From positions 1 through 64,000 of the forward strand of contig NZ_AUWQ01000011.1 in the NCBI RefSeq assembly GCF_000455205.1: a DNA stretch of 64,000 bases, in the 5' to 3' direction. The stretch's first letter is position 1, and every line of letters begins with the position of its first letter. The notes beneath the pieces were generated by a model. That model was not told the origin of the DNA. It did no database searches and saw only the letters and a list, made by a program, of their open reading frames with translations. The stretch is from Mycobacterium sp. UM_CSW. Its GTDB lineage: Bacteria; Actinomycetota; Actinomycetes; Mycobacteriales; Mycobacteriaceae. The position numbers were made by a program, and so were the translations under genes. Positions 20,851 to 41,424 of this stretch are shown here, in pieces.

Positions 20851-20972
20851 GCAGCCATGACGCGTCTTCCTGCACGTCTGCGGCCGGACGGGCATCCGGC
20901 GCGCGTCGCATCCCGACCAATTGCTGCCCGCCTCCCTTGGCGCTTCGCCAGGATTTTCACGGCTTGACGGCA

Positions 20973-20978
20973 TATCCT
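20973..20978 (+). promoter_or_regulatory. Putative -10 of lysX (TATCCT)
   Basis: TATCCT ends 8 bp before the proposed GTG start at 20987, leaving no room for a ribosome binding site, so the transcript would be essentially leaderless. Confidence 0.4.
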
Positions 20979-20986
20979 CGCGGTCT

Positions 20987-23900
20987 GTGACTCTCGCTAC
21001 GTCCCGCTTCGGCCCGCGTTCGGGCAGCCAGCCGAACTCCCGGTATCGCTGGGTACCGGCGGCGGCGGGCTGGACCGTCGGCGTCATCGCCACGGTGTCC
21101 CTGATCGCGAGCGTGTCGCCGCTGATCCGGTGGCTGATCAAGGTCCCACGGGAGTTCATCAACGACTACCTGTTCAACTTCCCCGACACCAGCATCGCGT
21201 GGTCGTTCGTGCTGGCCCTGCTGGCCGCCGCCCTTACGGCACGCAAACGCATCGCCTGGGTGTTGCTGCTCGGCAACATGGTCCTGGCCGCCGCTTTGAA
21301 CGCCGCCGACATCGCCGCGGGCGACAACACGGCGGCCGAGTCGTTCGGGGAGAACCTCGGCTTCGCCGTGCACATCGTCGCGATCGTGCTGCTGGTCCTG
21401 TCCTATCGGCAGTTCTGGGCCAAGGTGCGCAAGGCCGCGCTGTTCAAGGCGGCCGCGGTCCTGGTCACCGGGCTCGTAATCGGAATCCTGGCGTCCTGGG
21501 GCTTGGTCGAGATGTGGCCGGGCACCCTGGCGCCCGATTCGCGCTTTTGGTACGTCGTCAACCGGGTGGTCGGGTTCTCCATCGTCGATCCCGACGCGTT
21601 CACCGGCCGGCCGCACGTTCTGCTCAACGCGATCTTCGGGTTGTTCGGAGCGCTCGCGCTGATCGCGGCGACGATCGTGCTGTTCCAGTCCCAGCGTGCC
21701 GACAACGCGCTGACGGGCGAGGACGAGTCCGCGATCCGCGGGCTGCTCGAGCTCTACGGCAAACAGGACTCCCTCGGATATTTCGCCACCCGCCGCGACA
21801 AGTCGGTGGTGTTCGCCCCGAGCGGCCGGGCGGCCATCACCTACCGGGTCGAGATCGGGGTCTGTTTGGCCAGCGGTGACCCGATCGGTGACCCGAGGGC
21901 GTGGCCGCAGGCGATCGACGCGTGGTTGGGGTTATGCCAGACCTACGGCTGGGCGCCGGGTGTGATGGGCGCCAGTTCGCAAGGGGCCCAGGCGTTCCGG
22001 GAGGCCGGGCTCAACGCCCTCGAGCTGGGCGACGAGGCGATCCTGCGGACGTCCGACTACAAGCTGTCCGGCCCCGACATGCGCGGGGTGCGCCAGGCGG
22101 TGACCCGGGCGCGCAGGGCGGGGCTGACGGTACGCATCCGGCGACACCGCGACATCTCCGCCGACGAGATGGCCGAAACGATCTCGCGCGCCGACGCGTG
22201 GCGCGACACCCAAACCGAGCGTGGCTTTTCGATGGCGCTGGGCCGGCTCGGCGACCCGGCCGACGGCGACTGCCTGCTGGTCGAAGCCATCGATCGCGAG
22301 GGTCGGGTGGTCGCGATGCTGTCGCTGGTCCCGTGGGGAAGCACCGGCGTCTCCCTGGACCTCATGCGGCGTTCCCCGCAATCCCCCAACGGCACCATCG
22401 AACTCATGGTCAGCGAGCTCGCGCTGAACGCCGAAGCCCTTGGCATCATTCGCATTTCACTGAACTTTGCGATGTTCCGCTCGGCGTTCGAACAGGGCGC
22501 CCAGCTCGGCGCCGGGCCCATCGCCCGGTTGTGGCGCGGGTTCCTGTTGTTCTTTTCGCGGTGGTGGCAGCTCGAGACGCTGTACCGCTCGAACATGAAG
22601 TACCAGCCCGAGTGGGTTCCCCGGTACGCGTGTTACGAAGACGCCCGGCTGATTCCGCGGGTCGGCGTTGCCTCGGTGATCGCGGAGGGTTTCCTCGTCC
22701 TGCCGTTCAGCCGGCGGGAGAAGGTGCACACCGGGCACCATCCCGCGGTACCGGCCAGGCTGGCGGAGTCCGGGCTGCTGCATCACGACGGGTCGACGCC
22801 CGACGTGAGCGGCCTGCAACGCGGGGTCAAGGCGGCCGAGGCCGAGGAGTCGAGGTTGCGCCTGCCCGAGCAGGTACGGGTGCGCCTGGCCAAGCTGAAG
22901 ATATTGCAGCGCAACGGGGTTGACGCCTACCCGGTGGGGTGCCCGCCCAGCCACTCGATCGCCGCCGCGTTGGACGCCGACGATCAGGAGGACGTGTCGG
23001 TGGCCGGCCGCATCCTGCGGATCCGCGACTACGGCGGCGTGCTGTTCGCCCAGGTGCGCGACTGGTCGGGCGAAATGCAAGTGCTGCTGGACAATTCGCA
23101 TCTCGGACGCGGCCGTACCGCCGATTTCACCGCGGCCATCGATCTCGGTGATCTGGTCGAGATGTCCGGGCACATGGGCTTTTCCAAAAAGGGGACCCGC
23201 TCGTTGATCGTGCGCGACTGGCGGATGATCGGTAAGTGCCTGCGCCCGTTGCCGAATAAGTGGAAGGGGCTGACCGATCCCGAGGCGCGGGTGCGGACCC
23301 GCTACGTCGACCTGGCGGTCAACCCGGAGTCGCGCGAGCTGATCAGGGCCCGCAGCGAGGTGTTGCGCTCGGTTCGGGAAACCCTGTTCGCCAAGGGGTT
23401 CATCGAGGTCGAGACGCCGATCCTGCAGCAGATCCACGGCGGGGCCACCGCCCGGCCGTTCGTCACCCACATCAACACCTACGACATGGACCTGTTCCTG
23501 CGCATCGCGCCGGAGCTGTATCTGAAGCGGCTGTGCGTCGGCGGCGTGGAGCGGGTGTTCGAGCTGGGCCGGGCGTTCCGCAACGAGGGCGTCGACTTCA
23601 GCCACAACCCGGAGTTCACGCTGCTGGAGGCCTACCAGGCGCACGCGGATTACAAGGTGTGGATCGACGGCTGCCGGGAGCTCATTCAGAACGCCGCGCA
23701 GGCCGCCAACGGCGAGCAGACCGTGCTGCGTCCCCGGGCGGGGAGCGACGGCCGCCTCGAACCGGTCGACATCTCCGGCACATGGGCGGTGAAGACCGTG
23801 TACGGCGCGGTATCGGAGGCGCTGGGCGAGCACATCGATCCCGACACCTCACTGGCCGCCCTGCGCAGGATGTCCGACGCCCTGCACATTCCGTATCGGG

Positions 23901-24322
23901 CGCATTGGGATTCCGGCGCGGTGGTGCTGGAGCTCTACGAGCACCTGGTGGAGGACAGGACCGAGCAACCGACGTTCTACATCGACTTCCCCAGCTCAGT
24001 GTCTCCGCTGACCCGGCCGCACCGCAGTCAGCGCGGTGTTGCCGAGCGGTGGGACCTGGTGGCGTGGGGCGTCGAGCTGGGGACCGCCTACAGCGAGCTG
24101 ACCGACCCGGTGGAGCAGCGGCGCCGCCTGCAGGAGCAGTCGCTGTTGGCCGCCGGCGGGGATCCCGAAGCGATGGAGCTCGACGAGGACTTCCTGCAAG
24201 CCATGGAGTACGCGATGCCACCCACCGGCGGACTCGGTATGGGCATCGATCGGCTCGTCATGCTCATAACCGGCCGCAGCATCCGCGAAACCCTGCCGTT
24301 CCCGCTGGCCAAGCCGCATTAG
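20987..24322 (+). CDS. lysX: Bifunctional lysyl-tRNA synthetase / lysyl-phosphatidylglycerol synthase
   Basis: Two-part protein of about 1111 aa that transfers lysine from Lys-tRNA to phosphatidylglycerol, giving protection against cationic peptides. Residues 1 to about 220 hold multiple membrane spans; residues about 225-590 are the MprF-like transferase (DUF2156; [18 protein letters not shown]). From about 610 on there is a LysRS: OB-fold domain ([20 protein letters not shown]) and class II core ([45 protein letters not shown]). The GTG at 20987 fits a -10 just upstream; an in-frame TTG at 20921 would add 22 residues, some of which resemble the longer N-terminus I recall for the M. tuberculosis protein. 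Divergent from infC, as in M. tuberculosis. Confidence 0.95.
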
Positions 24323-24402: not shown

Positions 24403-25875
24403 ATGCACGTGACCGCCCCGACGCCCCTCGCCACGGCGCAGCTGGCCGGTAATTTCACCTCCCTGATGCACGGGTGGATACCCGCGACGATCCAGATCGG
24501 CACCGCCTTCGTGCTGGCGCTGGCCGTGGGCTGGCGGTCGCGACGATGGCGGGCGGTGTGGCTGCCGCTGGCCGGCGCCGCCGGGGGCGCCACGGCCTAC
24601 CTGACGCACTGGTACGTCGTCGACCGCGGCCTGTCCGACGAGCCGGCACCGTCGGCGCTGTGGGTGTGGGTCGCGTTGGCCGGCGTGGCCGCGGCAGTGC
24701 TGGTGGTGGGCTGGCGCAGCGCGCCGCCGTGGCGGCGCGGCGTGACGCTGCTTGCCGTGCCGTCGTGCTTGCTCTGCGCGGCGCTGGTGCTCAACGCGTG
24801 GGTCGGCTACTTTCCGACCGTGCAGGCGGCATGGAGCCAACTCACCTCCGGTCCCCTGCCCGATCAAACGGACCCGGCCACCGTCAGCGCGCTGGCCGCC
24901 AAGCGGACCCGCCCACCGCACGGCAGCGTGGTGCCGGTGGTGATCCCTTCGGATGCATCGCATTTCAAGCACCGCGGGGAACTCGTGTACCTGCCGCCCG
25001 AGTGGTTTACCAGCAGCCCGCCGCCGGCCCTGCCGACGGTGATGATGATCGGCGGACAGTTCAACACCCCCGCGGATTGGACGCGGGCGGGCAGCGCGGT
25101 CAGGACGATCGACGACTTCGCGGCCGCTCATGACGGCAAGGCGCCGGTGTTGGTGTTCGTCGACGCCGGAGGGGCCTTCAACAACGACACGGAATGCGTG
25201 AACGGCGTGCGCGGCAACGCCGCCGATCATCTGACCAAAGACGTTGTCCCTTACATGGTTTCGAAGTTCGGCGTGAGCGGCGACCGGTCCAACTGGGGCA
25301 TCACCGGCTGGTCGATGGGCGGGACGTGCGCCGTTGATCTGGCCGTGATGCACCCCGAGACGTTCAGCGCGTTCGTCGACATCGCGGGTGACTTCTTCCC
25401 GAATGCCGGCAACAGGTCTCAGACCATCGCCCGGCTGTTCGGCGGAAATGCCGAAGCCTGGGCCGCTTTCGACCCGACCACCGTGATCACCCGGCACGGC
25501 AGCTACCGCGACCTGGCCGGCTGGTTCGCGATCTCGTCGGACGGCCCGCCGACGCCGCGCGAGGACGTGGCCGTAACCGACTCCGGCGCAATGCGTCTCG
25601 CCGCGGCCAACCCGGGTAACCAGACCGCGGCCGCCTACTCGCTGTGCGCACTCGGCCGCGCCAACGGCATAGATTGCGCAGTCGTGCCCCAGCCGGGCAG
25701 GCACGACTGGCCGTTCGCCGGCCGGGCCTTCGCCGCCGCGCTGCCGTGGCTGGCCGGCCGGCTGGGCACCCCGGAGGCCCCACGCACGGCCCTGCCCCCC
25801 GCTTCCCCGCCCCCGCCGTCGCCCACCCGGGTAGTGGTTCCGGCTCAACGTTCCGCTACCGCAGGTGTTCGTTGA
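24403..25875 (+). CDS. Membrane-anchored alpha/beta-hydrolase, esterase D/Ag85-like (Rv1639c-like)
   Basis: 490 aa. The N-terminal 145 residues contain about four membrane spans. The outer part (about 185-470) is an esterase of the Ag85/esterase-D type, with an oxyanion-region segment (TVMMIGGQFNTPADW), nucleophile motif GWSMGG (Ser near residue 307), an acidic region (DAGGAFNNDTECVNG) and a candidate catalytic His in PGRHDW. The tail is Pro/Ala-rich. Length and place next to lysX match Rv1639c. The 3' end overlaps the convergent dienelactone hydrolase gene by 20 bp. An acyl transfer or esterase role in the envelope is inference. Confidence 0.8.
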   Translation: MHVTAPTPLATAQLAGNFTSLMHGWIPATIQIGTAFVLALAVGWRSRRWRAVWLPLAGAAGGATAYLTHWYVVDRGLSDEPAPSALWVWVALAGVAAAVLVVGWRSAPPWRRGVTLLAVPSCLLCAALVLNAWVGYFPTVQAAWSQLTSGPLPDQTDPATVSALAAKRTRPPHGSVVPVVIPSDASHFKHRGELVYLPPEWFTSSPPPALPTVMMIGGQFNTPADWTRAGSAVRTIDDFAAAHDGKAPVLVFVDAGGAFNNDTECVNGVRGNAADHLTKDVVPYMVSKFGVSGDRSNWGITGWSMGGTCAVDLAVMHPETFSAFVDIAGDFFPNAGNRSQTIARLFGGNAEAWAAFDPTTVITRHGSYRDLAGWFAISSDGPPTPREDVAVTDSGAMRLAAANPGNQTAAAYSLCALGRANGIDCAVVPQPGRHDWPFAGRAFAAALPWLAGRLGTPEAPRTALPPASPPPPSPTRVVVPAQRSATAGVR

Positions 25876-26560
25876 AGAACGTGACGATCCGCCGCCAGGC
25901 GTCCTCCGATTCGGGTTCGGAATAAGCCATCCCGGCCAGCCCCGCAATTATGCGGATTGGCGCGGGAACACAGTGGTCGTTCATGAAGCTGTGGCCGACA
26001 TTGGGATATTCCTTGACGTCACGCGGTACGTCACCCGCCGCCAATACGGCCTCGAGCCTTGCCGCGGTGCCGCGCCGCACGATGGGGTCGTTCGCGCCGA
26101 AGCTCGCGACCACCGGGCACGACTCGCCCAGCGCTTCCACGTCGCCAGGCAGCAGCCCGTAGTTCGGCGCTGCCGCGTCGAACACGCCGTGGGGGGCCAG
26201 TTGCATAACGAACCCCGCGCCGATGCAAAACCCGACGAGCCCGACCTTGCCGGAGCACCGCTCGTCGGCGACGAGGTGATCGCGGGCGGCAACCAGGTCG
26301 TCGTGGGCGGGGCCGCGGCCGGTCACATGGGCGCGGATGGTGCTCAGCATGCACCTGATCTTGGGACCGCGGCCGTAGAGCACCGGAGCCAGCGCCAGAT
26401 ACCCGCTGCGGGCCAAGCGGTCCGAGATCTGCCGCAAGTTCGCGGTCATGCCGAGTACGTCCTGAACGACCACCACACCGGGCCATGGCCCCGGGCCCTC
26501 GGGGACGGCGAGATAGCCGGGCAGGTGGCCGTCGGCGACCGAATAAGTGATATCACCCAT
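25856..26560 (-). CDS. Dienelactone hydrolase family protein
   Basis: 234 aa alpha/beta-hydrolase. The triad is visible: Cys112 in GFCIGAGF, Asp158 in GANDPIV and His190 in VGHSFMN. Cys as nucleophile is the DLH hallmark. The substrate is unknown. The ATG at 26560 starts MGDITYSVADG; the frame is open upstream without similarity. It is divergent from the TetR gene across 129 bp, a layout typical of a repressor with its target. Confidence 0.88.
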   Translation of the reverse strand: MGDITYSVADGHLPGYLAVPEGPGPWPGVVVVQDVLGMTANLRQISDRLARSGYLALAPVLYGRGPKIRCMLSTIRAHVTGRGPAHDDLVAARDHLVADERCSGKVGLVGFCIGAGFVMQLAPHGVFDAAAPNYGLLPGDVEALGESCPVVASFGANDPIVRRGTAARLEAVLAAGDVPRDVKEYPNVGHSFMNDHCVPAPIRIIAGLAGMAYSEPESEDAWRRIVTFFNEHLR

Positions 26561-26633
26561 GGCTCGGTGTTCCCCCAAATACCGTGTCGACCGTCGACCG
26601 TTTCCGCGGCGCGCATAGCCGTGACGATACGAA

Positions 26634-26660
26634 GATATGGTAATCCGATACCGCCATATC
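26634..26660. promoter_or_regulatory. Nested palindromes, probable TetR operator
   Basis: GATATGG and CCATATC (26634-26640, 26654-26660) enclose a second palindrome GGTA-ATCCGA-TACC (26639-26652). They lie in the divergent region between the DLH and TetR genes, 30-56 bp upstream of the TetR start, where an autoregulatory operator would be expected. The inner motif has the same shape as the sites at 1296 and 1461. Confidence 0.5.
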
Positions 26661-26689
26661 GTGACGCCGTGCCGGTGTATTGTCCGGCC

Positions 26690-27355
26690 GTGGAGCCTCC
26701 CCGGTTGTTTCCCTACGACCCGCCGCCTGCGCCCGAACCGTCGGCCAAAGAGCGGATTCGTGACGCCGCGCTGAGCTGTTTTGCCGTTCGCGGCATTGCT
26801 GCCACACCGCTGCGTGCGGTCGCCGAGACCGCGGAGGTTTCGATTGGGCTGGTGCAGCACCACTTCCACACCAAGGCCGCGTTAACCGCTGCCGTCGACC
26901 AGTACGTGCTCCAGGTGGTGGGTGAGGCATTGGAACCCTCAGCGCCGCTCGAACCGGAGTCCGACGCGCTCGAGGAAGCCGGCAACCGCCTGATCGCACT
27001 GATGGTCCGACGTCCCGACGTCATGACCTACCTGGGGCGCGCGCTCGCCGAGGGCGGCGCACTGGGGTCGGTGATCTTCACCGGGTTGGCGGCGATCAGC
27101 GCGGGGCAGGGTAACCAATTCGGGCAACACGGCAACCTTCGATCCGACCTCGATCCGGATTGGGGGGTGCTCAACCCGCTCATCCTGCGGATCGGCGCCA
27201 TCATTCTGCAGCCGTACATCGAGATCTACCTCGGCGAGCCGTTCTTCACCGAGCCGCAGCTGCGACGCTGGGATACCGCCGTCACCAGCCTGATACGGCG
27301 GGGCCAATTCGCCGAGGAAGCGGAGACCCCGGGCAGCGACGCCATCGCTTGGTGA
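26690..27355 (+). CDS. TetR family transcriptional regulator
   Basis: 221 aa. The N-terminal helix-turn-helix covers about residues 20-65 (AKERIRDAALSCFAVRGIAATPLRAVAE, recognition helix region SIGLVQHHF). The C-terminal ligand domain is unassigned. The GTG at 26690 is chosen; GTGs at 26669 and 26675 are in frame. It is divergent from the DLH gene and 61 bp upstream of the ThiF-nitroreductase gene on the same strand, so it may control either or both. Confidence 0.88.
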   Translation: MEPPRLFPYDPPPAPEPSAKERIRDAALSCFAVRGIAATPLRAVAETAEVSIGLVQHHFHTKAALTAAVDQYVLQVVGEALEPSAPLEPESDALEEAGNRLIALMVRRPDVMTYLGRALAEGGALGSVIFTGLAAISAGQGNQFGQHGNLRSDLDPDWGVLNPLILRIGAIILQPYIEIYLGEPFFTEPQLRRWDTAVTSLIRRGQFAEEAETPGSDAIAW

Positions 27356-27416: not shown

Positions 27417-29546
27417 ATGGACGAGCCCGAGGTAACCGCGCACAGCGCGCAAGTTCTCGACCCCGACGAGCCCGACGACGCACTGACGTTGGAGCGGCTA
27501 CGCGCCGATCCCCTCGTCGAGGTTGTCGACCGGCTCGATGCGCAACTGGCCAATCTGCGCAGCCTTCGGCCGGCACCGGATTCGGAGCTCCTCGGCGAGC
27601 CGAGCCGGTGGGCTTACTACCCCTGGCGGCGGACCGTCGTCGCGGTGCTGGGCCCGAAGGGGTTTCGGACGCTACGACTTGATCGCAACAGAAACAACAT
27701 CACCATTCGAGAACAGGCCCGGCTCCATTCGCTGACCATCGGCGTCGCCGGCCTGAGCGTCGGCCATGTCATCGCTCACACGCTGGCGCTACAGGGACTA
27801 TGTGGCAGGATTCGGCTGGCAGATTTCGATCATTTGGAACTGTCAAATCTGAATCGGGTGCCGGCCACCGTGTTCGATCTTGGGTTGAACAAGGCGCATG
27901 TGGCGGCACGCCGGATCGCCGAGCTTGATCCCTACCTCGCGGTGGACGTGTTCGACGCGGGACTCACCGCGAACAACCTCGACGCGTTCCTGGATGGACT
28001 CGACCTCGTTGTCGAGGAATGCGATTCGCTCGACATCAAGGTTGGCCTGCGCATGGCAGCGCGCGACCGGCGTCTCCCCGTGCTGATGGCAACAAGCGAT
28101 CGCGGCAGGGTCGACGTTGAACGCTTCGATCAAGACCCTGACCGTCCAATCCTGCACGGGCTGCTGGGCGACCTGGACATCGAGCTGCTGCCGGGCATGA
28201 GCATCCGGGAAAAAATTCCTTACATGCTCCGTTACGACGAAGCCGATCGGGTATCGCCCCGCACTGCCGCATCACTTCTCGAGATCGACCGATCGGTCTC
28301 GACCTGGCCTCAGCTGGCATCCGACGTCATCGTCGGCGCTTCGGCCCTAGCCGAAGCCGTACGCAGAATCGGGCTGGGCGAAGAACTGAGATCGGGTCGA
28401 TGCCGCATCGACATGGGCTGGGAACTCGATCAACTCGACGAAGTCGAGCCGGCCCACCGTCGCCCCGAGCCCGACGACGGACATGGCAGCGACGCAGCCC
28501 CTTCGATGGTCAGCGATCCTATTGTCGCTGCCGCGCTGCGCGCCCCCTCGGGCGGAAACAGCCAGCCATGGCGTATCGACGCAAACCCGACCAAACTAAC
28601 CATAAGCGTTGCGCCGGAACATACTTCAACCATGGACGTGGGGTTCCGCGGCAGCGCTGTCGCATTGGGCGCAGCCCTTTACAACGTCAGGATCGCCGCC
28701 GCCGCCCGCGGGGTGCTCGGGCCGGTGAGCGTCTCCGAAGACGTAGCCGGCTCTCCCCTACAGGCCGGGATCGACTTCGGAAACGGTAACGACCCCGCCC
28801 TCGCCGACCTTTACGAACCGATGCTCGCACGCGAGACCAATCGCCATCGCGGAACGCGTCAACCACTCGACGACCAGACGATCAAGTTGCTCTCGACCGC
28901 GGCAGAGCGGGAGGGCGCGCGTCTGCACCTGCTCACCGAGCGGGACGACCTTTCGCGGGCCGCAACGGTTTTCGGTGCAGCCGACCGAATCCGGTACTTG
29001 ACACCGCAGCTGCACAAAGAGATGTTTTCGGAACTGCGCTGGCCCGGTGACCCTGATCCCGACGTCGGTATCGAGGTGCTCAGCCTCGAACTCGACGACA
29101 GCGACTTGGCACTATTTGATGTCGTCCGGCGTCCCGACGTGATGGCTTGCCTTGCGGACTGGAACGCCGGCAGCGCGCTGGGCGACGGCATGCGCGACCA
29201 AGTCCTCGACAGCTCGGCACTGGCGGTGATCACCGTGACCGGGGAGCGTCTTACCGACTACGCCCGCGGTGGATCAGCCGTCGAGGCGGTATGGATCCTC
29301 GCGCAGCGCGAGGGCCTCGCCGTCCGGCCGTTGTCGCCGGTCTTCTTGCACGCTCGAAACGCTGACGATCTCCACGAGTTATCCGCCGACTTTGCCAGCG
29401 AATTGCAGCAATTGCAAAGCGATTTCGTCCGCCTTACCGCGACCGGTCCCGAGGAATCGATCGTGCTGGTCTTGCGGTTGACCACCGCACCACCTGCGTC
29501 GCGACCGAGTCGCCGCAGTCTGAGCCGACTCCGTTCCCGGCGGTAG
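27417..29546 (+). CDS. ThiF/E1-like - nitroreductase fusion (MoeY-like)
   Basis: 709 aa with two enzymatic domains. Residues about 100-330 are an E1/ThiF adenylation domain: nucleotide loop GVAGLSVG (109-116), Asp136/Asp138 in ADFD, SNLNR (143-147), Lys159 and Asp203. The adenylation residues are present, but no CxxC zinc pairs are seen. Residues about 366-700 are a flavin nitroreductase-like domain with RAPSGGNSQPWR (375-386), close in type to the Acg family. The architecture and length recall Rv1355c (annotated moeY), which in M. tuberculosis I remember next to the GGDEF-EAL gene Rv1354c; here a GGDEF-EAL gene also lies nearby. It could activate a carboxylate and oxidise or reduce the product. 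The molybdopterin label is unproven. The ATG at 27417 is preferred. Confidence 0.8.
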   Translation: MDEPEVTAHSAQVLDPDEPDDALTLERLRADPLVEVVDRLDAQLANLRSLRPAPDSELLGEPSRWAYYPWRRTVVAVLGPKGFRTLRLDRNRNNITIREQARLHSLTIGVAGLSVGHVIAHTLALQGLCGRIRLADFDHLELSNLNRVPATVFDLGLNKAHVAARRIAELDPYLAVDVFDAGLTANNLDAFLDGLDLVVEECDSLDIKVGLRMAARDRRLPVLMATSDRGRVDVERFDQDPDRPILHGLLGDLDIELLPGMSIREKIPYMLRYDEADRVSPRTAASLLEIDRSVSTWPQLASDVIVGASALAEAVRRIGLGEELRSGRCRIDMGWELDQLDEVEPAHRRPEPDDGHGSDAAPSMVSDPIVAAALRAPSGGNSQPWRIDANPTKLTISVAPEHTSTMDVGFRGSAVALGAALYNVRIAAAARGVLGPVSVSEDVAGSPLQAGIDFGNGNDPALADLYEPMLARETNRHRGTRQPLDDQTIKLLSTAAEREGARLHLLTERDDLSRAATVFGAADRIRYLTPQLHKEMFSELRWPGDPDPDVGIEVLSLELDDSDLALFDVVRRPDVMACLADWNAGSALGDGMRDQVLDSSALAVITVTGERLTDYARGGSAVEAVWILAQREGLAVRPLSPVFLHARNADDLHELSADFASELQQLQSDFVRLTATGPEESIVLVLRLTTAPPASRPSRRSLSRLRSRR

Positions 29547-29551
29547 CCGAC

Positions 29552-30421
29552 TCAGAACGGCTTTGCGGTGAATCCCCAGCGCAACAAGGCCGACTCGCGG
29601 CGGGCCGCCCCGCGTAACCGGGCATCATGCGTGCCGGTCAGAGCGTTCGGTTTGCCGCGCGCACCGAACATCCAGTACGCCTGCAGATAGGGCAACGGTG
29701 TCGAATGACCGCAGTGCATTCCTTGCAGTCCAGCCGCGGCAAGCTCTTTCGAGAGCTCGGCGATGGTGAACGCCGCCGCCTCGCTTGCGATTGCGTCTTT
29801 TCGCAAGACAGCCGGCGAGTCGGGGTCTGCGATCGCGAGCATGTTGGGGGCGGCTGTCGGGTCCCGTAGGCGCTGGAAATCGGAGATCCATACCGCGGCC
29901 CCGCTGTCGCTTTGGATAGCAGCGATCTGTCCGAGTGCACCGCGCAAAGAGACGAAATCCGGCAGCTGATGCAGCGTCCACATGCAGGAGATCGCGTCCC
30001 ACGGAGCCGTTGAAATCCGTCCTGGCAGCGCGGTGATGTCCTCGCGCAGCAGTTCGACACGTTCGCCTAGACCTTCAGCGTCGAACAGCTCGCGCGCCGT
30101 GGACAGCATGTTGGGGGCCAGATCGACGGCGGTCGCCCGGACATCGGGCCGTCGGCGCAGGACGGCGCTGAGCGCACGGCCCGAGCCGACGCCGAGATCC
30201 AACAGCGCGCCGCCTGGTGGAAGGAGCGCATCGAGCGCACGGGCGCAGAAGTCGTATATCGCGACTATCCCTGGGTTGGACGCGCCGCCGGTGTGGAACT
30301 GGGCGACGGATTCCGGATCGTCCACCACCATTGGCTCGGGAATGCGCTCGCGCCCCGCGGGATGGAAGCGCTCGCGCAAAACGACGCCGGGTACCCGCCA
30401 CATCGGCCGAATTCTCTTCAC
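29552..30421 (-). CDS. Class I SAM-dependent methyltransferase
   Basis: 289 aa. SAM motif I is LLDLGVGSGRA (near residue 73), with the acidic motif II residue in AVDLAPNM and a motif III region LREDITALP. The C-terminal third is unlike common families, so the substrate is unknown. The GTG at 30421 has GAGAGG six bases upstream; TTG 30427 and ATG 30403 are alternatives. Its stop lies 5 bp from the convergent stop of the ThiF-nitroreductase gene. Confidence 0.75.
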   Translation of the reverse strand: MKRIRPMWRVPGVVLRERFHPAGRERIPEPMVVDDPESVAQFHTGGASNPGIVAIYDFCARALDALLPPGGALLDLGVGSGRALSAVLRRRPDVRATAVDLAPNMLSTARELFDAEGLGERVELLREDITALPGRISTAPWDAISCMWTLHQLPDFVSLRGALGQIAAIQSDSGAAVWISDFQRLRDPTAAPNMLAIADPDSPAVLRKDAIASEAAAFTIAELSKELAAAGLQGMHCGHSTPLPYLQAYWMFGARGKPNALTGTHDARLRGAARRESALLRWGFTAKPF

Positions 30422-30629
30422 CCTCAACCTCTCATGGAGTCCGCGTCATCGATTTCGAGCCGCACTGTCATACATGATTATGAACTCGACACATGTTCTC
30501 CACTGGCCGCACGTGGTCTTTCGATCTTCGGAAAAGACGTTAAGGACTTGCCCGGTCACCCGGGATCGGTAAGCTTTGCCTGCGCGGTCCTTTGATCGAG
30601 ATAGGAAACGTTGTCCGCGGGAGGTAGGC

Positions 30630-32000
30630 GTGGTTCAGACCCTTGCGAGTGACGGACTCAAATCTTTACCGCTGCCGCCGGTGAATCCCATGCCCTATCG
30701 GCAGCGTCTTGCGGCGGTGCGGGAATTCAGCACGGGTACCGAACGGCTGCGTGATGCCGGCGGGCGAGTGTCCTTTTTCAGGTTAGGTCCGCGATGGCTG
30801 ATGCCGCCGATTGTGTTGGCAACATCTCCGGAGGCTATTCGCGACATCCTCAGCACCAAAGATGATTCCGTCGACAAGACGACCCCGGTCTTCGAGCAGG
30901 TGCGCCACATCATCGGGGCCAGCCTTACTGATCTTCCCTTCGAGCCGTGGAAGTCACGTCGGCGCACCCTGCAGCCGGTGTTCACCAAGCAGCGTGTGAA
31001 CGAGTTCGGCGGCCACATGGAGCAGGCAGCACAGTCCGTGAGCCAGGGGTGGCGCGAGGATGCCGTGATCGATTTGGACGCCGAGTGCCGCACGATCACG
31101 CTGCGCGCGCTTGGCCGGTCGGTGCTCGGGCTCGACCTGGAACAACGCGCCGACGAGGTTGTTGAGCCGCTGCGGGTGGCGTTGGCCTACGCGGTCAGGC
31201 GCGCGACGAGCCCGCTACGCGCCCCGCGCTGGTTGCCCACTCCCGCGCGTCAGCGCGCGCGAGCGGCAAGCGCGAAACTTCATGCCCTGACGCAGGAGAT
31301 TTTGCGCGACTGTCGCGCCGATCCGACGCGAGTCGCACCACTGGTCCACGCTCTCATCGCCGCCGAGGATCCAGAGACCGGAAAACGATTGACTGATGAA
31401 GAGATTTGCGACGAACTGGTCATGTTTCTCTTCGCCGGCCACGACACCACAACCACGGCGTTGACGTATGCATTGTGGGCGCTGGGACACCACCCCGACT
31501 GTCAGGACCGCGTCGCGGCAGAAGTCGCGGCACTGCCGGATCGGCCGCTGACGTCCGACGACATGCCGCGGCTGGGCTATACGGTCCAGGTCATCCGGGA
31601 ATCGCTTCGCCTGTGCCCCCCGGCGCCCACTGGTACACGTATGGCGTGCCGGGACGTGGAGGTCGGCGGTTACCGCGTGCCGAAGGGCACCATGCTCGTT
31701 GTCGGGAGGATGGCCGTACAGCGCGACCCGCAACTCTGGGAGGACCCGCTCCGATTCGATCCCGACCGGTTCAGCCCTGAGAACTTCAAGGCGCTCAACC
31801 GTTGGCAATATGTGCCATTTGGCGGCGGACCGCGCTCGTGCATTGGCGACCATTTCGCCATGCTCGAAGTGACCCTCGCCTTGGCGACGCTCATCCGCGG
31901 GTTCGAAATCCGCTCTCTCGACGACGAATTTCCGCTTGCATTGCACTTCACGATGATTGCCGGTGGTCCGATTCCTGCCCGTGTTCGACCGCGTCGCTAG
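30630..32000 (+). CDS. Cytochrome P450
   Basis: 456 aa monooxygenase. Visible are the I-helix oxygen-activation motif AGHDTTTT (near residue 270), the K-helix ExxR in RESLR, the PERF-type segment DPDRFSPENF, and the haem loop FGGGPRSC with the axial Cys at about residue 404. A hydrophobic N-terminal anchor is absent, so the enzyme is soluble. GTG at 30630 has GGGAGG six bases upstream. The substrate is unknown. It lies in the accessory block next to two methyltransferases; no ferredoxin or reductase gene is adjacent. Confidence 0.93.
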   Translation: MVQTLASDGLKSLPLPPVNPMPYRQRLAAVREFSTGTERLRDAGGRVSFFRLGPRWLMPPIVLATSPEAIRDILSTKDDSVDKTTPVFEQVRHIIGASLTDLPFEPWKSRRRTLQPVFTKQRVNEFGGHMEQAAQSVSQGWREDAVIDLDAECRTITLRALGRSVLGLDLEQRADEVVEPLRVALAYAVRRATSPLRAPRWLPTPARQRARAASAKLHALTQEILRDCRADPTRVAPLVHALIAAEDPETGKRLTDEEICDELVMFLFAGHDTTTTALTYALWALGHHPDCQDRVAAEVAALPDRPLTSDDMPRLGYTVQVIRESLRLCPPAPTGTRMACRDVEVGGYRVPKGTMLVVGRMAVQRDPQLWEDPLRFDPDRFSPENFKALNRWQYVPFGGGPRSCIGDHFAMLEVTLALATLIRGFEIRSLDDEFPLALHFTMIAGGPIPARVRPRR

Positions 32001-32514
32001 CGGTATCCGGCGCCAAGGCGTATCGACGGCTTGGGAACAACGATAGGGCGCGGCCACACCTGATCACCGACAAAAACGCTATCGCCTGTGCAGCAACGAT
32101 TCTGGCCCGAGCACTCCGCAGCCGCGACGGTGGCACACATGCACGGCTGCGGCGCTGCCCTGGACCTGACACGATCTCCGAGCTGCGCCGCCGGAAATCA
32201 AGCCCGTCGGCGCGAGACAGTGGGCGCCGCCCAAATGTCACGGTCCACCTGGCACAACAGCCGTAGCAGAGCGCTCGGTCGGTAATACACATATGTTGAA
32301 CAGTCCGCGCCGGCTGTAATGGCTGTCACCGAGCAGCAGCGTGGAATCAGGCGACCGGGGTGCGGCGACCGTCCCATCGGGGCGATCTGGCCCGGCTGCC
32401 TGCGGTAAACCGGGTCGGGGCGCGCATGGATCTGCCAGTGTGATTCCACACAGACGCGTGACGCGGCAAACAAAAACTGCCTCCGCGCACTAGTAACAGC
32501 TACGGTAAGGGCAA
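32001..32514. other. 514-bp spacer, no gene seen
   Basis: Between the P450 and GGDEF-EAL genes. No ORF has codon use or similarity that supports a gene, and no tRNA or riboswitch was recognised. A TACGGT -10-like hexamer at 32501-32506 sits 8 bp before the next ATG. Confidence 0.5.
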
Positions 32515-34422
32515 ATGTCGGGCACCTTGGACTACTTGGTCACTGCGGCCGCCGCCGAGTTGATGGCGGCCACCGCGGCTGACTCGGCCGCAGTCAGCGA
32601 ACGAGTGCTCGGCAACCTGGTTCGCGACTTGGGCGTCGATTTCAGCTTCCTGCGACACAACGACCACACCATCCGCGCCACGATCCTCATCGCCGAATTC
32701 CCGCCCCGCAATGCCGACCCGGACCCGATTGGCATAGTGCATTTCGCCGACGCCGACTCGATCTTCGCTCGGGCCGAACACCTCAAGGCGCCAGACGTGA
32801 TGCGGCCCCGGCCGGACAACGCCGACTATCAACACAACATTGAAGAGGGCACCGGTGCTCCTACCGTCTCCCTCGCCGCCGTTCCGCTGCTATCCGGCGA
32901 CGTCACCACCGGCACGCTAGCCTTCGGCAAGCTCGGAGACCGCGAATGGCTACCGGAAGAACTCAACGCCCTGCAAGCCATCGCCGCGCTGTTCGCCCAG
33001 CTGCAGGGCCGCACCGTCGCAGAAGAACGACTCCACTATCTCGCCGAACACGATGACCTCACCGGCCTGCTCAACCGCAGGGCGCTGATCGAGTACCTGG
33101 ACCAGCGGCTGGCCGCGGGGCAGCCCGGTCCGGTCTCGGTGGTGTTCATCGCCTTGGACCGCTTCAAGGTCATCAACGACCACCTGGGTCAAAACGCCGG
33201 CGACCGGTTCATCGAGGCCTTCGCCCAACTGGTGCGCGAGGCCACGGACATTCCGGCGGCCATCGCCCGTTTCGGCGGTGACGAGTTCGTCGTCGTACCC
33301 ACGACACCAATGGACATCGAGGCCGCCGAAGTGTTTGCCCAATCGCTGCACGACCTCGTCCACAAGCAGGTCGTGATCGACGATGAGCTGCTCACCCGTA
33401 CGGTCAGCATTGGCGTCACGTCGGCTCTACCCGGGCAGGACAGCACCTCGGACGTGCTGCGCCGGGTCGACCAGGCCCTCCGGTCGGCGAAAAGTTCCGG
33501 CGGCGACAGGGTCGTCACTTTCAGCCCGGAAATGTTGAGAACGAACATGATCCGCAACGACATCGAACTGCACCTGGAAGGGATGGTCGACAGCCGTACT
33601 GGCGCCATGGTGCTCCATTACCTTCCGGAGTTCGACATGCGAACCGGTGAGATCCTCGGCACCGAGGCGCTAATCCGTTGGCAACACCCCACTCTCGGAC
33701 TGTTGATGCCCGATTCGTTCATCCAGGTGGTCGAATCGATCAACCTGGGCGCCAAACTCGGCCGTCTCGTAATGCGTGCGGCGTGTGCGCAGTTCGGGCT
33801 TTGGCAGTCACGCGACGTCGGGCGCGGTGCGGTGTTGCGCATCAACGTATCGCCCGTGCAGCTCGTCACCGATGGCATCGTCGACACGGTCGCGACCACA
33901 CTCAACGAGTTCGGCCTCGACCCGCAGACGGTATGCCTGGAGATCACCGAAAGCGTGGTGGTCCAAGACATCGATGCCACACGCAAGACGCTCTTCAGAT
34001 TGAAGGAGATCGGGGTACAGATCGCCATCGATGACTTCGGCACCGGCTACAGCGTGCTGACGTATCTGAAATCGCTGCCCGTCGACACGCTCAAGATCGA
34101 CAAGGGGTTTGTCCGTAATCTCGACACCAACGCCGGCGACCTGGCGATCGTGCGCTCCACAATGGCCCTGGCCGATGCCTTCGGACTGAACGCCGTCGCC
34201 GAAGGCGTCGAAACCGTAGCCGCGGCCAAGACATTGCTCGGCCTGGGCTGCTACCGGGCGCAAGGCTTTCTGCTCTCCCGCCCGCTGGACAGCGCCGCGA
34301 TGGAGGCGCTGCTCGCCAAACGCGTCGTGCCGATGGACTTCTCCGACGGCGCGGCCACTGCACCGGATAAGGGCTCCGCCACCGAGAACGTAGTTGAGAT
34401 CCGCGGCAAGCAGAACTCTTGA
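32515..34422 (+). CDS. GAF-GGDEF-EAL protein, probable c-di-GMP phosphodiesterase
   Basis: 635 aa. Residues about 10-165 form a GAF-like sensor, 172-335 a GGDEF domain and 350-620 an EAL domain. GGDEF is intact at 254-258, but the first metal Asp of the DxDxFK motif is Ala213 (ALDRFK), and no RxxD inhibitory site precedes GGDEF. EAL (383-385), Asn in INVSP, EITES, DDFGTG (505-510), KIDKGFV, AEGVET and RAQGF are all present. The balance favours c-di-GMP hydrolysis, with GGDEF as a possible GTP-binding regulatory domain. The architecture equals Rv1354c of M. tuberculosis. No membrane span. Confidence 0.9.
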   Translation: MSGTLDYLVTAAAAELMAATAADSAAVSERVLGNLVRDLGVDFSFLRHNDHTIRATILIAEFPPRNADPDPIGIVHFADADSIFARAEHLKAPDVMRPRPDNADYQHNIEEGTGAPTVSLAAVPLLSGDVTTGTLAFGKLGDREWLPEELNALQAIAALFAQLQGRTVAEERLHYLAEHDDLTGLLNRRALIEYLDQRLAAGQPGPVSVVFIALDRFKVINDHLGQNAGDRFIEAFAQLVREATDIPAAIARFGGDEFVVVPTTPMDIEAAEVFAQSLHDLVHKQVVIDDELLTRTVSIGVTSALPGQDSTSDVLRRVDQALRSAKSSGGDRVVTFSPEMLRTNMIRNDIELHLEGMVDSRTGAMVLHYLPEFDMRTGEILGTEALIRWQHPTLGLLMPDSFIQVVESINLGAKLGRLVMRAACAQFGLWQSRDVGRGAVLRINVSPVQLVTDGIVDTVATTLNEFGLDPQTVCLEITESVVVQDIDATRKTLFRLKEIGVQIAIDDFGTGYSVLTYLKSLPVDTLKIDKGFVRNLDTNAGDLAIVRSTMALADAFGLNAVAEGVETVAAAKTLLGLGCYRAQGFLLSRPLDSAAMEALLAKRVVPMDFSDGAATAPDKGSATENVVEIRGKQNS

Positions 34423-34429
34423 TCGGCGC

Positions 34430-35029
34430 TTACGCGCGCCGCTGAAACAGGTAGTAGCGCGACGGGTTCTTGTGGTCAAGCTCTCGTTCATCGCCCGCGG
34501 AGACCAGCGTCCAGCCCGGGGTAAATCGGCGCTCTATTTCGGCATGGTCGATGCCTGGCACACCGATCCTGCGGCCGGGAGGAAACGCGGCGATGTAGAG
34601 CCACGCGTCGGGCGCCGCCACAGCAGAGACTTCCCGGACGTAGGCGTCACGATCGGCGCCACTCATGTTGTGGATGCAGGCGTTGTCGACGATCAACTGA
34701 AAGCCCGCACCGATTCCGGCCCGACTCAATTGCGTCACGTCGGCGCGCACAAAGTTGACCGAAACATCGGCGGCGCGAGCTTTGGCGCGGGCCTTGTCGA
34801 GCGGCTTGGCCACATAGTCGACCGCAGTTACCTGCCAACCGTGCTGGGCGAGGTAAATCGCGCAGTCTCCGGTACCGCATCCGACATCGAGGGCCGATCC
34901 CGTGGACAGTCCGGCTTCGCCCGACGTTCCTTCGACCAGGTCTCGTAGACCCTGCCCGATCGGATGGCCCTCCCAGGGTGTGAAGCCGATGCGGTAGAAA
35001 ATCCGAAAGCGAGTGTGTCGCGAGGCCAT
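34430..35029 (-). CDS. Class I SAM-dependent methyltransferase
   Basis: 199 aa from the ATG at 35029 (MASRHTRFRIFYRIGFTPWEGHP). SAM motif I is ALDVGCGTGDCAIYLA; the next acidic residue is in VTAVDYVAKPL. Overall it resembles the thiopurine/TehB-like small-molecule methyltransferases. No clear ribosome binding site is seen before 35029; the frame is open to 35155, so a longer form with a TTG or GTG start is possible. Convergent with the GGDEF-EAL gene, 7 bp between stops. Confidence 0.75.
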   Translation of the reverse strand: MASRHTRFRIFYRIGFTPWEGHPIGQGLRDLVEGTSGEAGLSTGSALDVGCGTGDCAIYLAQHGWQVTAVDYVAKPLDKARAKARAADVSVNFVRADVTQLSRAGIGAGFQLIVDNACIHNMSGADRDAYVREVSAVAAPDAWLYIAAFPPGRRIGVPGIDHAEIERRFTPGWTLVSAGDERELDHKNPSRYYLFQRRA

Positions 35030-35250
35030 ACACGCAATGATCGCATTCGCGGCGAGCAGCCGCTCTCCGGCCCGGTAATCGCCACGCCTGACCGCCCTTT
35101 CGACGATCTCGAGGTCATTACCGGCAACGGTTCGTCGAATTCTGTGTAGCACCAACGAAAATAGATGCGCCGCGCCGTCGCCGTAGTCCCAACGTTGCCG
35201 CCAATGAGATCACCGTCGACGAGGACGTTCAGGCTGCGGCCCGATCTCTC

Positions 35251-35967
35251 CTAAGCCGAAATGCGACCGAGAATTTCGGCGTTGTGGGCGCACATCAGCT
35301 TGAATTGTTCGGGTTCGGCGTGCGTCGCGATGGTTCGGCGGTCCCACCACATCACTTTGGTGCGGTAGTCCTCGGTGGGATAGGCGGCCGCCGGTATGCC
35401 AGAGGCCACGACGCCGCCGGAGGATGCCCACTGCTCCAACACGTGAGCCGCTGCGGTGGCCATGATGAACTGGACATCCAGCATCGTCATCACCGGCAGT
35501 GCGTTACGCGCCAGCACCCGGGACAGCACCCGGCTGCTGTAATCCTGGGAATTGGTCCAAGCGCTTTTGACTTCGACAACGCCGAAGGGGATGCGGTTGG
35601 CGATCATATGGCTCAGCACGGCACGTCCCGGATTGCCGGCCCACTCGTCGAGCGCGTGGGACTGCTCGGGTGCGCGCAGGGGACCCACGAGGCGGTGACC
35701 GCCGACCACCCGGCCGTTTGGGTCGACCACGGCGAAGAACAGCGTCGTGTCGGCGCCATCCCGAATCGCGTCGAGATCGAGCACCCACTCCAAGCCGTGA
35801 CGACGGTAGCTGCGGACCGCGCCGTCCAGGTATTGCTCCCATAGGTCGGGCTCCGCCTGTGGCGTGGCCGCGGAGACCCAGCATCCTGTCGCCAGATCGC
35901 GCCAGCCTGTCCCGCCTTCCAACCACGGGCCGTGAATCGCCTGACCAGTGAGCTGAGCCGCTTCCAT
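35251..35967 (-). CDS. Unassigned protein, GNAT/LuxI-like acyltransferase candidate
   Basis: 238 aa, not firmly recognised. The segment FFAVVDPNGRVVGGHRLVGP (residues about 76-95) looks like the core strand-turn-strand of acyl-homoserine-lactone synthases and N-acyl amino acid synthases (GNAT fold). VEVKSAWTNSQDYSS follows where those families place catalytic residues, and a terminal YRTKVMWWDRRT segment is similar in style. The ATG at 35967 has AAGGGA six bases upstream; an upstream in-frame start at 36036 lacks a ribosome binding site. The upstream region is unusually AT-rich. If it is an acyltransferase, an acyl-CoA or acyl-ACP donor is expected; this is inference. Confidence 0.5.
   Translation of the reverse strand: MEAAQLTGQAIHGPWLEGGTGWRDLATGCWVSAATPQAEPDLWEQYLDGAVRSYRRHGLEWVLDLDAIRDGADTTLFFAVVDPNGRVVGGHRLVGPLRAPEQSHALDEWAGNPGRAVLSHMIANRIPFGVVEVKSAWTNSQDYSSRVLSRVLARNALPVMTMLDVQFIMATAAAHVLEQWASSGGVVASGIPAAAYPTEDYRTKVMWWDRRTIATHAEPEQFKLMCAHNAEILGRISA

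Positions 35968-38511: not shown

Positions 38512-41424
<2,913 letters not shown>

What the first reader, a model, noticed from the sequence alone, without database searches (positions are those of the whole stretch)
27417..35967. Candidate undescribed locus: E1-nitroreductase fusion, P450, two methyltransferases, acyltransferase-like protein and a c-di-GMP enzyme
A protein that can adenylate a carboxylate and carry out flavin chemistry lies with tailoring enzymes (P450, methyltransferases) and a possible acyl donor enzyme, beside a GAF-GGDEF-EAL protein. In M. tuberculosis a MoeY-like gene (Rv1355c) is, as I recall, also next to a GAF-GGDEF-EAL gene (Rv1354c), so the link between E1-nitroreductase and c-di-GMP may be functional. 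The whole could make or sense a modified small molecule.
Basis: inference. Interest (0 to 1): 0.75.

Follow-up and report, generated by a model that had tools for sequence, protein, structure and literature searches.

The report
Decorated tryptazolone gene cluster in Mycobacterium
This is an enlarged version of a recently described mycobacterial gene set that turns an amino acid into a small ring-shaped lipid (an acyl-oxazolone), here with an added P450 oxidase and methyltransferases and, as in most relatives, beside an enzyme for the second messenger c-di-GMP, which gives a way to test what these molecules do.

Summary
In detail: all six proteins are there, and both outer coordinates match plausible starts (27417, 35967). 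The core is not undescribed. P0001 is a TrzS (NCBIfam "Rv1355c family", 1020 bits), and P0006 belongs to the family encoded directly upstream of trzS in most relatives, i.e. TrzA. A December 2025 paper (PMC12856293) showed that Rv1356c/Rv1355c (TrzA/TrzS) acylate tryptophan, cyclise it and desaturate it to N-acyl tryptazolones.

New here is the decoration. A P450 subfamily lies within 4 kb of trzS at 44 of 128 other mycobacterial trzS loci, in all four relative orders and orientations. MT1 occurs in 17 of 218 genomes (E<=1e-60), in all 17 beside this P450. The same P450 subfamily lies between acyltransferase and ThiF genes in a split oxazolone-type cluster (2 genomes). I read the locus as a tailored acyl-oxazolone cluster.

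The c-di-GMP link is recurrent. A GGDEF+EAL gene lies within 3 kb at 104 of 128 mycobacterial loci. Outside the genus a GGDEF and/or EAL gene does so at 38 of 40 loci with trzA but 1 of 34, mostly more distant, loci without. Product, methyl acceptor and regulatory direction are untested. Verdict: new variant of a known kind.

The parts
26669..27355 (+). TetR-family regulator (C-terminal half of the mechanical ORF 25865-27355), directly upstream of trzS; probable local regulator; start approximate, set from the length of the homologue in L002
   Evidence: PF00440 38.9 bits; homologues in the same place in L002-L005 and next to trzS/P450 in further loci
27417..29546 (+). trzS homologue: ThiF-like cyclase + Acg-type flavin oxidase fusion (ORF from 27384)
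   Evidence: NCBIfam NF005901 1020.5 bits, cut-off 476; catalytic D214 and R537 invariant in 127 of 127 aligned rows
29552..30427 (-). MT1, class I SAM methyltransferase, beside the P450 wherever found
   Evidence: PF13649 48 bits; in 17 of 218 genus genomes at E<=1e-60, in all 17 beside the P450
30576..32000 (+). cytochrome P450 of a subfamily tied to trzS
   Evidence: PF00067 240.6 bits; haem motif FGGGPRSCIG at 415, AGHDTT at 287, ESLR at 342; relatives within 4 kb of trzS at 44 of 128 loci
32515..34422 (+). GAF-GGDEF-EAL protein (c-di-GMP synthesis/breakdown)
   Evidence: Pfam hits; GGDEF at 254 and EAL at 384 with further EAL-domain motifs
34430..35155 (-). MT2, second class I SAM methyltransferase
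   Evidence: PF13649 63.7 bits; among the 140 fetched stretches strong relatives (350 bits or more) only in nine, all close to the window's locus, directly after the GGDEF-EAL gene; not searched genus-wide
35251..35967 (-). trzA homologue: amino-acid N-acyltransferase (ORF to 36036)
   Evidence: Homologues within 300 bp of trzS at 79 of 84 loci without the P450 (upstream); fused to the N-terminus of TrzS at 18 loci outside the genus; function inferred from TrzA of PMC12856293

Best explanation
The locus makes a decorated N-acyl oxazolone. TrzA (35251-35967) transfers an acyl group from acyl-CoA to an aromatic amino acid, most likely tryptophan. TrzS (27417-29546) adenylates the carboxylate with its ThiF half, which closes the oxazolone ring, and desaturates the ring with its flavin half. 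The P450 then (or between these steps) oxidises the indole ring or the acyl chain, and MT1, perhaps also MT2, methylates the new hydroxyl. The neighbouring GAF-GGDEF-EAL protein links the pathway to c-di-GMP, either by sensing a pathway compound through its GAF domain or by tuning c-di-GMP under the same regulator. Shown elsewhere for homologues: the acylation, cyclisation and desaturation steps. Shown here: family membership, conserved catalytic residues and recurrent linkage. Inferred: the oxidation and methylation steps, the order of steps, the amino acid used, and the coupling to c-di-GMP.
For: TrzS identity: 1020.5 bits to the Rv1355c family. Residues whose change cripples M. smegmatis TrzS (D217, R540) correspond, by a constant offset of 3, to D214 and R537, invariant in 127 of 127 rows. 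TrzA: within 300 bp of trzS at 79 of 84 loci without the P450; fused to TrzS at 18 of 40 TrzA-bearing loci outside Mycobacterium. P450: within 4 kb of trzS at 44 of 128 loci; upstream same strand 18, upstream opposite 14, downstream same 7, downstream opposite 5; between trzA and trzS, same strand, in L147, L168 and L203; its sequence distances track those of TrzS (Mantel r 0.79, 0 of 2000 permutations as high). P450s 71-72% identical to the nearest trzS-linked one lie between a TrzA relative and separate ThiF and flavin-oxidase genes in L239 and L240. MT1: 17 of 17 beside the P450. Precedent for methylated products of related clusters: stieleriacines (passages of PMC12479983). c-di-GMP: GGDEF+EAL gene within 3 kb at 104 of 128 mycobacterial loci; GGDEF and/or EAL gene within 3 kb at 38 of 40 TrzA-bearing versus 1 of 34 TrzA-lacking loci outside the genus. 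In 10 genomes trzA keeps a GGDEF-EAL neighbour although trzS lies 10 kb or more away.
Against: Nothing was measured. The window has R at position 648 where 100 of 127 rows have Q (M. smegmatis Q651), though Q651A only reduced the product. The P450 subfamily is widespread: 136 of 218 genomes have a match at E<=1e-130, and only the closest members lie by trzS; five fetched P450s with about 615-632 bits do not (L241-L245). MT2 is seen with strong similarity only in the window's near relatives among the fetched stretches. In L007-L080 (outside Mycobacterium) no P450 match exceeds 62 bits. c-di-GMP: 11 of 128 loci have no GGDEF or EAL gene in the fetched stretch, and the TrzA-lacking comparison loci are more distant relatives (27 of 34 have no flavin domain in the same ORF), so the contrast is not a matched one.
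Confidence: 0.72

Rival explanations
1. Same cluster, other amino acid: TrzA/TrzS here act on tyrosine, phenylalanine or another residue, so the product is a decorated oxazolone but not a tryptazolone.
For: The window's TrzS lies in a 34-row clade made up mostly of P450-bearing loci (28 of 34), apart from most canonical loci, and TrzA is 42-57% identical to most others of the genus. In the P450-bearing group column 656 of the flavin domain is H in 55% where the other rows are 98% Y, and column 648 is R in 5 of 44 rows, the window included. TrzA of M. tuberculosis acylates phenylalanine weakly in vitro.
Against: Three TrzAS pairs tested in vivo in PMC12856293 gave oxazolones from tryptophan alone although TrzS of M. 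smegmatis and M. tuberculosis are just 55% identical.
Confidence: 0.3
2. The P450 and methyltransferases break down or detoxify oxazolones (or an unrelated lipid) and do not build a final product.
For: A TetR gene lies beside the cluster, as is common for catabolic P450s (inference); in 19 of 44 loci the P450 is on the strand opposite to trzS.
Against: Compact same-strand order trzA-P450-trzS in L147, L168 and L203 and trzA-P450-ThiF-oxidase in L240; MT1 was found only with the P450, which suits oxidation followed by methylation.
Confidence: 0.15
3. The c-di-GMP gene is only an old neighbour with no role in the pathway.
For: In mycobacteria much of the adjacency is inherited; 11 of 128 loci lack it in the fetched stretch, among them the P450-type loci L115, L116, L123, L125, L127, L128, L130. 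Between P450-bearing and other loci the GAF domain is not more diverged than GGDEF or EAL.
Against: 38 of 40 versus 1 of 34 outside the genus, with different architectures (joined GGDEF-EAL, or separate GGDEF and EAL genes); trzA keeps such a gene in 10 genomes where trzS lies elsewhere; GAF identity tracks the flavin domain and TrzA beyond EAL and GGDEF (partial r 0.32 and 0.30, 0 of 1000 permutations each), although weaker signals of the same kind exist for EAL and GGDEF.
Confidence: 0.3

Closest known systems
TrzA/TrzS (Rv1356c/Rv1355c and homologues in M. smegmatis and R. jostii RHA1), N-acyl tryptazolone pathway (PMC12856293, Dec 2025)
   Same: ThiF-flavin oxidase fusion with conserved Asp and Arg; N-acyltransferase homologue; c-di-GMP gene as neighbour
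   Different: Here trzA is inverted and 5.7 kb away; P450, MT1 and MT2 are added; TetR directly upstream; the block lies between lysX and uvrA
TyzACB (TyzC = Rv2337c) N-acyl tyrazolone pathway (PMC10404671, passages; PMC12856293)
   Same: Same three activities
   Different: Separate cyclase and oxidase genes; no P450 or methyltransferase is mentioned in the main text. L239/L240 resemble this split layout but carry the window's P450 subfamily
OxzAB of Pseudoalteromonas rubra (known here only through PMC12856293 and PMC10404671)
   Same: Acyltransferase plus ThiF-oxidase fusion
   Different: Proteobacterial; tyrosine/phenylalanine products
Stieleriacine-type N-acyl dehydrotyrosine clusters (PMC12479983, passages)
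   Same: N-acyl synthase, ThiF and nitroreductase-family proteins with a methyltransferase
   Different: Planctomycetes; the word P450 does not occur in the main text; no oxazolone observed there
Mycobacterial GAF-GGDEF-EAL proteins (Rv1354c type; domain make-up of Rv1354c recalled)
   Same: Domain order and motifs
   Different: Here beside MT2 and the P450 and not directly after trzS

Membership tests
TrzS (Rv1355c family, NF005901) | Score above the curated cut-off over the full length | tested here: met
   1020.5 bits versus cut-off 476, residues 14-714
TrzS (Rv1355c family, NF005901) | ATP-site Asp (M. smegmatis D217) and FMN-site Arg (R540) | tested here: met
   D214 and R537 by constant offset 3, invariant in 127 of 127 rows; the M. 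smegmatis sequence itself was not identified among the rows, so the mapping is by offset
TrzS (Rv1355c family, NF005901) | Gln651 near FMN (a tested residue, not essential) | tested here: inconclusive
   Column 648 is Q in 100 of 127 rows and R in the window; Q651A reduced but did not abolish the product
TrzA (Rv1356c type N-acyltransferase) | Homology to the protein encoded directly upstream of trzS | tested here: met
   42-57% identity to most genus homologues, 69-97% to near ones; within 300 bp of trzS at 79 of 84 loci without the P450; fused to TrzS at 18 loci. Rv1356c itself was not compared
TrzA (Rv1356c type N-acyltransferase) | Acyltransferase fold or activity | not testable with these tools
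   No Pfam or PDB relative by sequence; the structure job accepted was not finished at the last poll
trzAS tryptazolone pathway | Product N-acyl tryptazolone from tryptophan | not testable with these tools
   Needs expression and LC-MS
Cytochrome P450 | Haem-binding Cys motif, I-helix and ExxR motifs | tested here: met
   FGGGPRSCIG 415, AGHDTT 287, ESLR 342
Bifunctional GGDEF-EAL c-di-GMP enzyme | Intact GGDEF and EAL motifs | tested here: met
   GGDEF 254, EAL 384, NVSP, ITE, DDFG, KID, EGVE, QGF present; activity not testable

The most novel reading that the evidence does not exclude
Acyl-oxazolones (or their N-acyl amino acid precursors) are small diffusible signals of Actinomycetota, made by TrzA/TrzS and read by the GAF domain of the neighbouring c-di-GMP enzyme, a functional counterpart of acyl-homoserine-lactone signalling. 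The P450/MT1-decorated version in this window would then be a private 'dialect' of that signal, with its reader and writer kept together as the chemistry changes.
Probability: 0.22. Interest if true: 0.9.

Novelty: new variant of a known kind. Interest (0 to 1): 0.58.

Why it matters
The role of mycobacterial oxazolones is open (called a major unresolved question in PMC12856293). The locus predicts new, decorated members of the class in mycobacteria and names the enzymes to test. The contrast 38 of 40 versus 1 of 34 turns a remark about c-di-GMP neighbours into a testable link seen in several genera. The EAL-trzA-trzS-GGDEF/EAL set also has open frames in two 3.27-Mb genomes that match the leprosy bacilli by length, which suggests it is worth keeping even under strong gene loss.

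Tried and rejected
Rejected readings. MoeB/MoeY-type molybdopterin role: NCBIfam molybdopterin and ThiF models score far below their cut-offs while the Rv1355c family scores 1020 bits. Ubiquitin-like conjugation: I noticed no ubiquitin-like partner but ran no dedicated search for one; the fused oxidase and the TrzA partner fit oxazolone chemistry. Chance neighbours: excluded by recurrence.

Led nowhere: TrzA fold by sequence against PDB and Pfam (only noise); promoter and terminator scan (0 promoter-like sites, 3 terminator-like sites against a shuffled mean of 6.9); Pfam on ten neighbouring ORFs (hydrolase, antiporter, LysX, AMP-binding enzyme, acyl-CoA dehydrogenase, a methyltransferase, the rest without clear family) gave no further partner that I could argue for; literature search for the ThiF-nitroreductase and diguanylate cyclase link (no relevant paper). 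Structure prediction of TrzA was accepted but not finished at its last poll; MT1 was aligned but never folded. Distribution of the Rv1355c model in the order: 42 of 298 genomes at E<=1e-80, not followed further.

Limits of counts: mycobacterial loci come from 218 sampled genus genomes and share ancestry; 5 changes of the P450 label on the tree (shuffled mean 36.7) show clustering and not 44 independent events. Of the TrzS places, those of G142 and G158 (split matches) and one piece of G028 were not fetched. One row (L238, short) was dropped from the tree, leaving 127 loci plus the window; rows of 600 residues or fewer were dropped before (127 rows with the window). The match lists were cut by the tool. 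In one search, TrzA 'present' means over 60 bits; L070 and L071 with 23-24 bits were counted as absent. GGDEF/EAL calls there are by comparison with the window's domains; Pfam confirmed them only in the two loci tried (L030, L043). Genome names are withheld for G handles; the leprosy assignments rest on contig length (3,271,694 in the start of the abstract of PMC9248898 as listed; the M. leprae length is recalled). L013 is titled Candidatus Saccharibacteria but looks like the acidimicrobial loci in score and layout; I take the title as doubtful, untested.
Full report
What is there. The window lies on contig C11 of a 6.39-Mb Mycobacterium genome (nearest named relative Mycobacterium sp. E796, 96% over the 640 TrzS residues on its contig). 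Between lysX (20921-24322, 1894.6 bits) and uvrA (38512-41424, reverse, 1594.6 bits) lies an esterase-like gene (24403-25875) and then a block of lower G+C (0.63-0.66 per kb at 27-37 kb; 0.66-0.72 in the kilobases around it except 0.64 at 20 kb): TetR, a ThiF-nitroreductase fusion, methyltransferase MT1 (reverse), P450, GAF-GGDEF-EAL, methyltransferase MT2 (reverse) and a protein without Pfam hit (reverse).

What the core is. NCBIfam names P0001 'Rv1355c family' at 1020.5 bits (cut-off 476). The search for Rv1355c in full text led to PMC12856293 (parts 1 to 4 of 7 read, plus word searches). There Rv1356c = TrzA acylates L-tryptophan (best kcat/Km with C5:0-CoA) and Rv1355c = TrzS cyclises and then desaturates it to N-acyl tryptazolone; variants D217A and R540A of the M. 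smegmatis enzyme are deficient in cyclase and desaturase function. In my alignment of 127 rows the positions at the same offset, D214 and R537, never vary; the third tested residue, Q651, falls on column 648, which is Q in 100 rows and R in the window. The paper notes the adjacent c-di-GMP genes rv1354c and rv1357c once, and neither 'P450' nor 'methyltransferase' occurs in its main text; the same holds for PMC10404671 (passages only). Supplementary files were not seen.

TrzA. P0006 has no Pfam hit and no convincing PDB relative. It is TrzA by homology and position: relatives lie within 300 bp of trzS at 79 of the 84 mycobacterial loci without the P450 (upstream in the map). A second line is fusion: outside Mycobacterium, 40 of 74 loci (L007-L080) carry a TrzA relative, and in 18 of these it is the N-terminal part of one ORF with TrzS or its ThiF part, 965-1024 residues where complete and unextended (L052 is cut by the contig end, L037 is broken in frame, L025 and L031 have longer mechanical ORFs). 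PMC12856293 speaks of ThiF-oxidase fusions only, in the passages I saw.

The P450. In 218 genus genomes TrzS is found in 124 (E<=1e-60), TrzA relatives in 124 (E<=1e-25), MT1 in 17 (E<=1e-60). I fetched 140 stretches, of which 128 hold TrzS. A P450 of the window's subfamily lies within 4 kb at 44 of the 128: upstream on the same strand 18, upstream opposite 14, downstream same 7, downstream opposite 5. The highest 43 P450 matches (643 bits and more, the window's own included) comprise 41 with TrzS nearby on the same contig; the two others, G070 and G163, lie within 0.7 kb of a contig end, and G070 (73% complete) has no TrzS match. Gene order was thus reshuffled several times while the pair stayed together. 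P450 sequence distances follow those of TrzS (r 0.79, 0 of 2000 permutations; shared descent adds to this). On the TrzS tree the label needs 5 changes, shuffled mean 36.7. The most telling case is L239/L240: a TrzA relative, a P450 71-72% identical to the nearest trzS-linked one, a separate ThiF protein and a separate Acg-type oxidase follow one another within 16 bases or overlap, in L240 with a methyltransferase gene in front (in L240, the one scanned, the oxidase is below the Pfam and NCBIfam cut-offs, the ThiF protein over those of Pfam ThiF and of PRK08223). So the same P450 subfamily serves two oxazolone-type layouts. Against it: the wider subfamily has a match in 136 of 218 genomes (E<=1e-130), and five of the next-best members lie elsewhere (L241-L245).

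The methyltransferases. MT1 is in 17 of 218 genomes and in all 17 beside the P450 (16 fetched loci), which suits methylation of a group that the P450 introduces. Among the 140 fetched stretches MT2 has strong relatives (350 bits or more) only in nine, all of the window's near kin, directly after the GGDEF-EAL gene; weak relatives (47-66 bits) lie near trzS or the c-di-GMP gene in other loci, most of them with the P450. MT2 was not searched in whole genomes. Its part in the pathway is a guess.

The c-di-GMP link. A gene with both GGDEF and EAL lies within 3 kb at 104 of 128 mycobacterial loci and within 9 kb at 116; 11 have neither domain in the fetched stretch. The 25 genus genomes carry 0 to 14 EAL matches, 100 in all, i.e. 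about 4 per genome, so a chance neighbour within 3 kb is expected at under 1% of loci (my estimate). Outside the genus the contrast is 38 of 40 loci with TrzA (the two misses, L007 and L052, have little or no contig left) against 1 of 34 without TrzA (L023). The latter are more distant: 27 of 34 have no flavin domain in the same ORF, so this is not a matched control. Architectures differ: joined GGDEF-EAL downstream in Rhodococcus/Rhodococcoides L008-L012 and in the fused acidimicrobial-type loci; separate GGDEF and/or EAL genes in Gordonia, Williamsia and other Rhodococcus loci (Pfam on L030 and L043). In ten genomes whose P450-type trzS has no trzA in the fetched stretch (G185, G179, G109, G077, G213, G096, G034, G198, G187, G121), trzA matches 220-568 bp in front of a GGDEF-EAL match at a place 10 kb or more from trzS (coordinates). 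Of the five further such loci with full flanks, four (G087, G157, two of G206) belong to genomes that also have a trzA-trzS-GGDEF/EAL operon elsewhere (in G206 with trzA in two frames), and G204 was left open. After allowing for EAL and GGDEF identity, GAF identity over 98 loci still tracks the flavin domain (partial r 0.32) and TrzA (0.30), 0 of 1000 permutations each. Weaker signals exist for other pairs: GAF-ThiF domain 0.15 (1 of 1000), EAL-flavin 0.13 (9), EAL-TrzA 0.10 (30), EAL-ThiF 0.19 (0), GGDEF-TrzA 0.18 (0). Against a product-sensing GAF: between P450-bearing and other loci the GAF domain is not more diverged than GGDEF or EAL. Published transcript data are ambiguous: deletion of the phosphodiesterase gene BCG1419c (Rv1357c) raises BCG1418c (Rv1356c, trzA) about 1.8-fold (log2 0.867, PMC11126594) and 2.0-fold (PMC6005825) (passages), but it is the deleted gene's neighbour and other neighbours rise as well.

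Mechanism. Established for homologues: acyl-CoA + Trp to acyl-Trp (TrzA); ATP-dependent ring closure, then O2-dependent desaturation (TrzS). Inferred: P450 oxidation of indole or acyl chain; methylation by MT1 (perhaps MT2); TetR control; c-di-GMP coupling. The amino acid used here is not known; columns near the flavin site differ between the P450-bearing group and the rest (656: H in 55% against 98% Y), so a changed substrate is possible.

Verdict. What I could not find in print (open-access library, no supplements) is the P450/MT1-decorated form, the TrzA-TrzS fusion and the c-di-GMP contrast across genera.

Noticed in passing
   Followed up: partly
G075:C1 at 1032775, 2375082 and 2846244: The GGDEF-EAL gene occurs three times with equal score, within 100% identical repeated segments of this genome; real duplication or assembly effect is open.
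   Followed up: partly
L013-L022, L024-L026, L031, L034, L037, L052, L066: TrzA fused to the N-terminus of TrzS (18 loci), followed by a GGDEF-EAL gene in all but L052, where the contig ends.
   Followed up: yes
L239 (6827-11003, reverse) and L240 (8006-12906): Split oxazolone-type cluster: TrzA relative, P450, separate ThiF (PRK08223 family) and Acg-type oxidase, in L240 with a methyltransferase in front (domain searches on L240 only).
   Followed up: partly
G000:C104:32839-33510 (L247): The window's genome has a second TrzA relative (52% identity) with no trzS or c-di-GMP gene in the 20 kb fetched.
   Followed up: no
L113 (2621-3691), L119 (4691-5761), L120 (4176-5246): An additional GGDEF-only gene lies inside the cluster next to MT2 in some close relatives.
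   Followed up: no
window 24403-25875 and 38512-41424: The block sits between an esterase-like gene beside lysX and uvrA, with a G+C dip, which looks like an insertion there.
   Followed up: partly
L158 (G013:C105): A mycobacterial locus where TrzA and TrzS match in one open frame of 993 residues; may be a fusion or a chance lack of stop.
   Followed up: no
L128 (G087:C3, 152,685 bp) and L130 (G206:C2, 277,627 bp): P450-type trzS on a short second contig while a trzA-trzS-GGDEF/EAL operon is on the large one; may be plasmid-borne.
   Followed up: no
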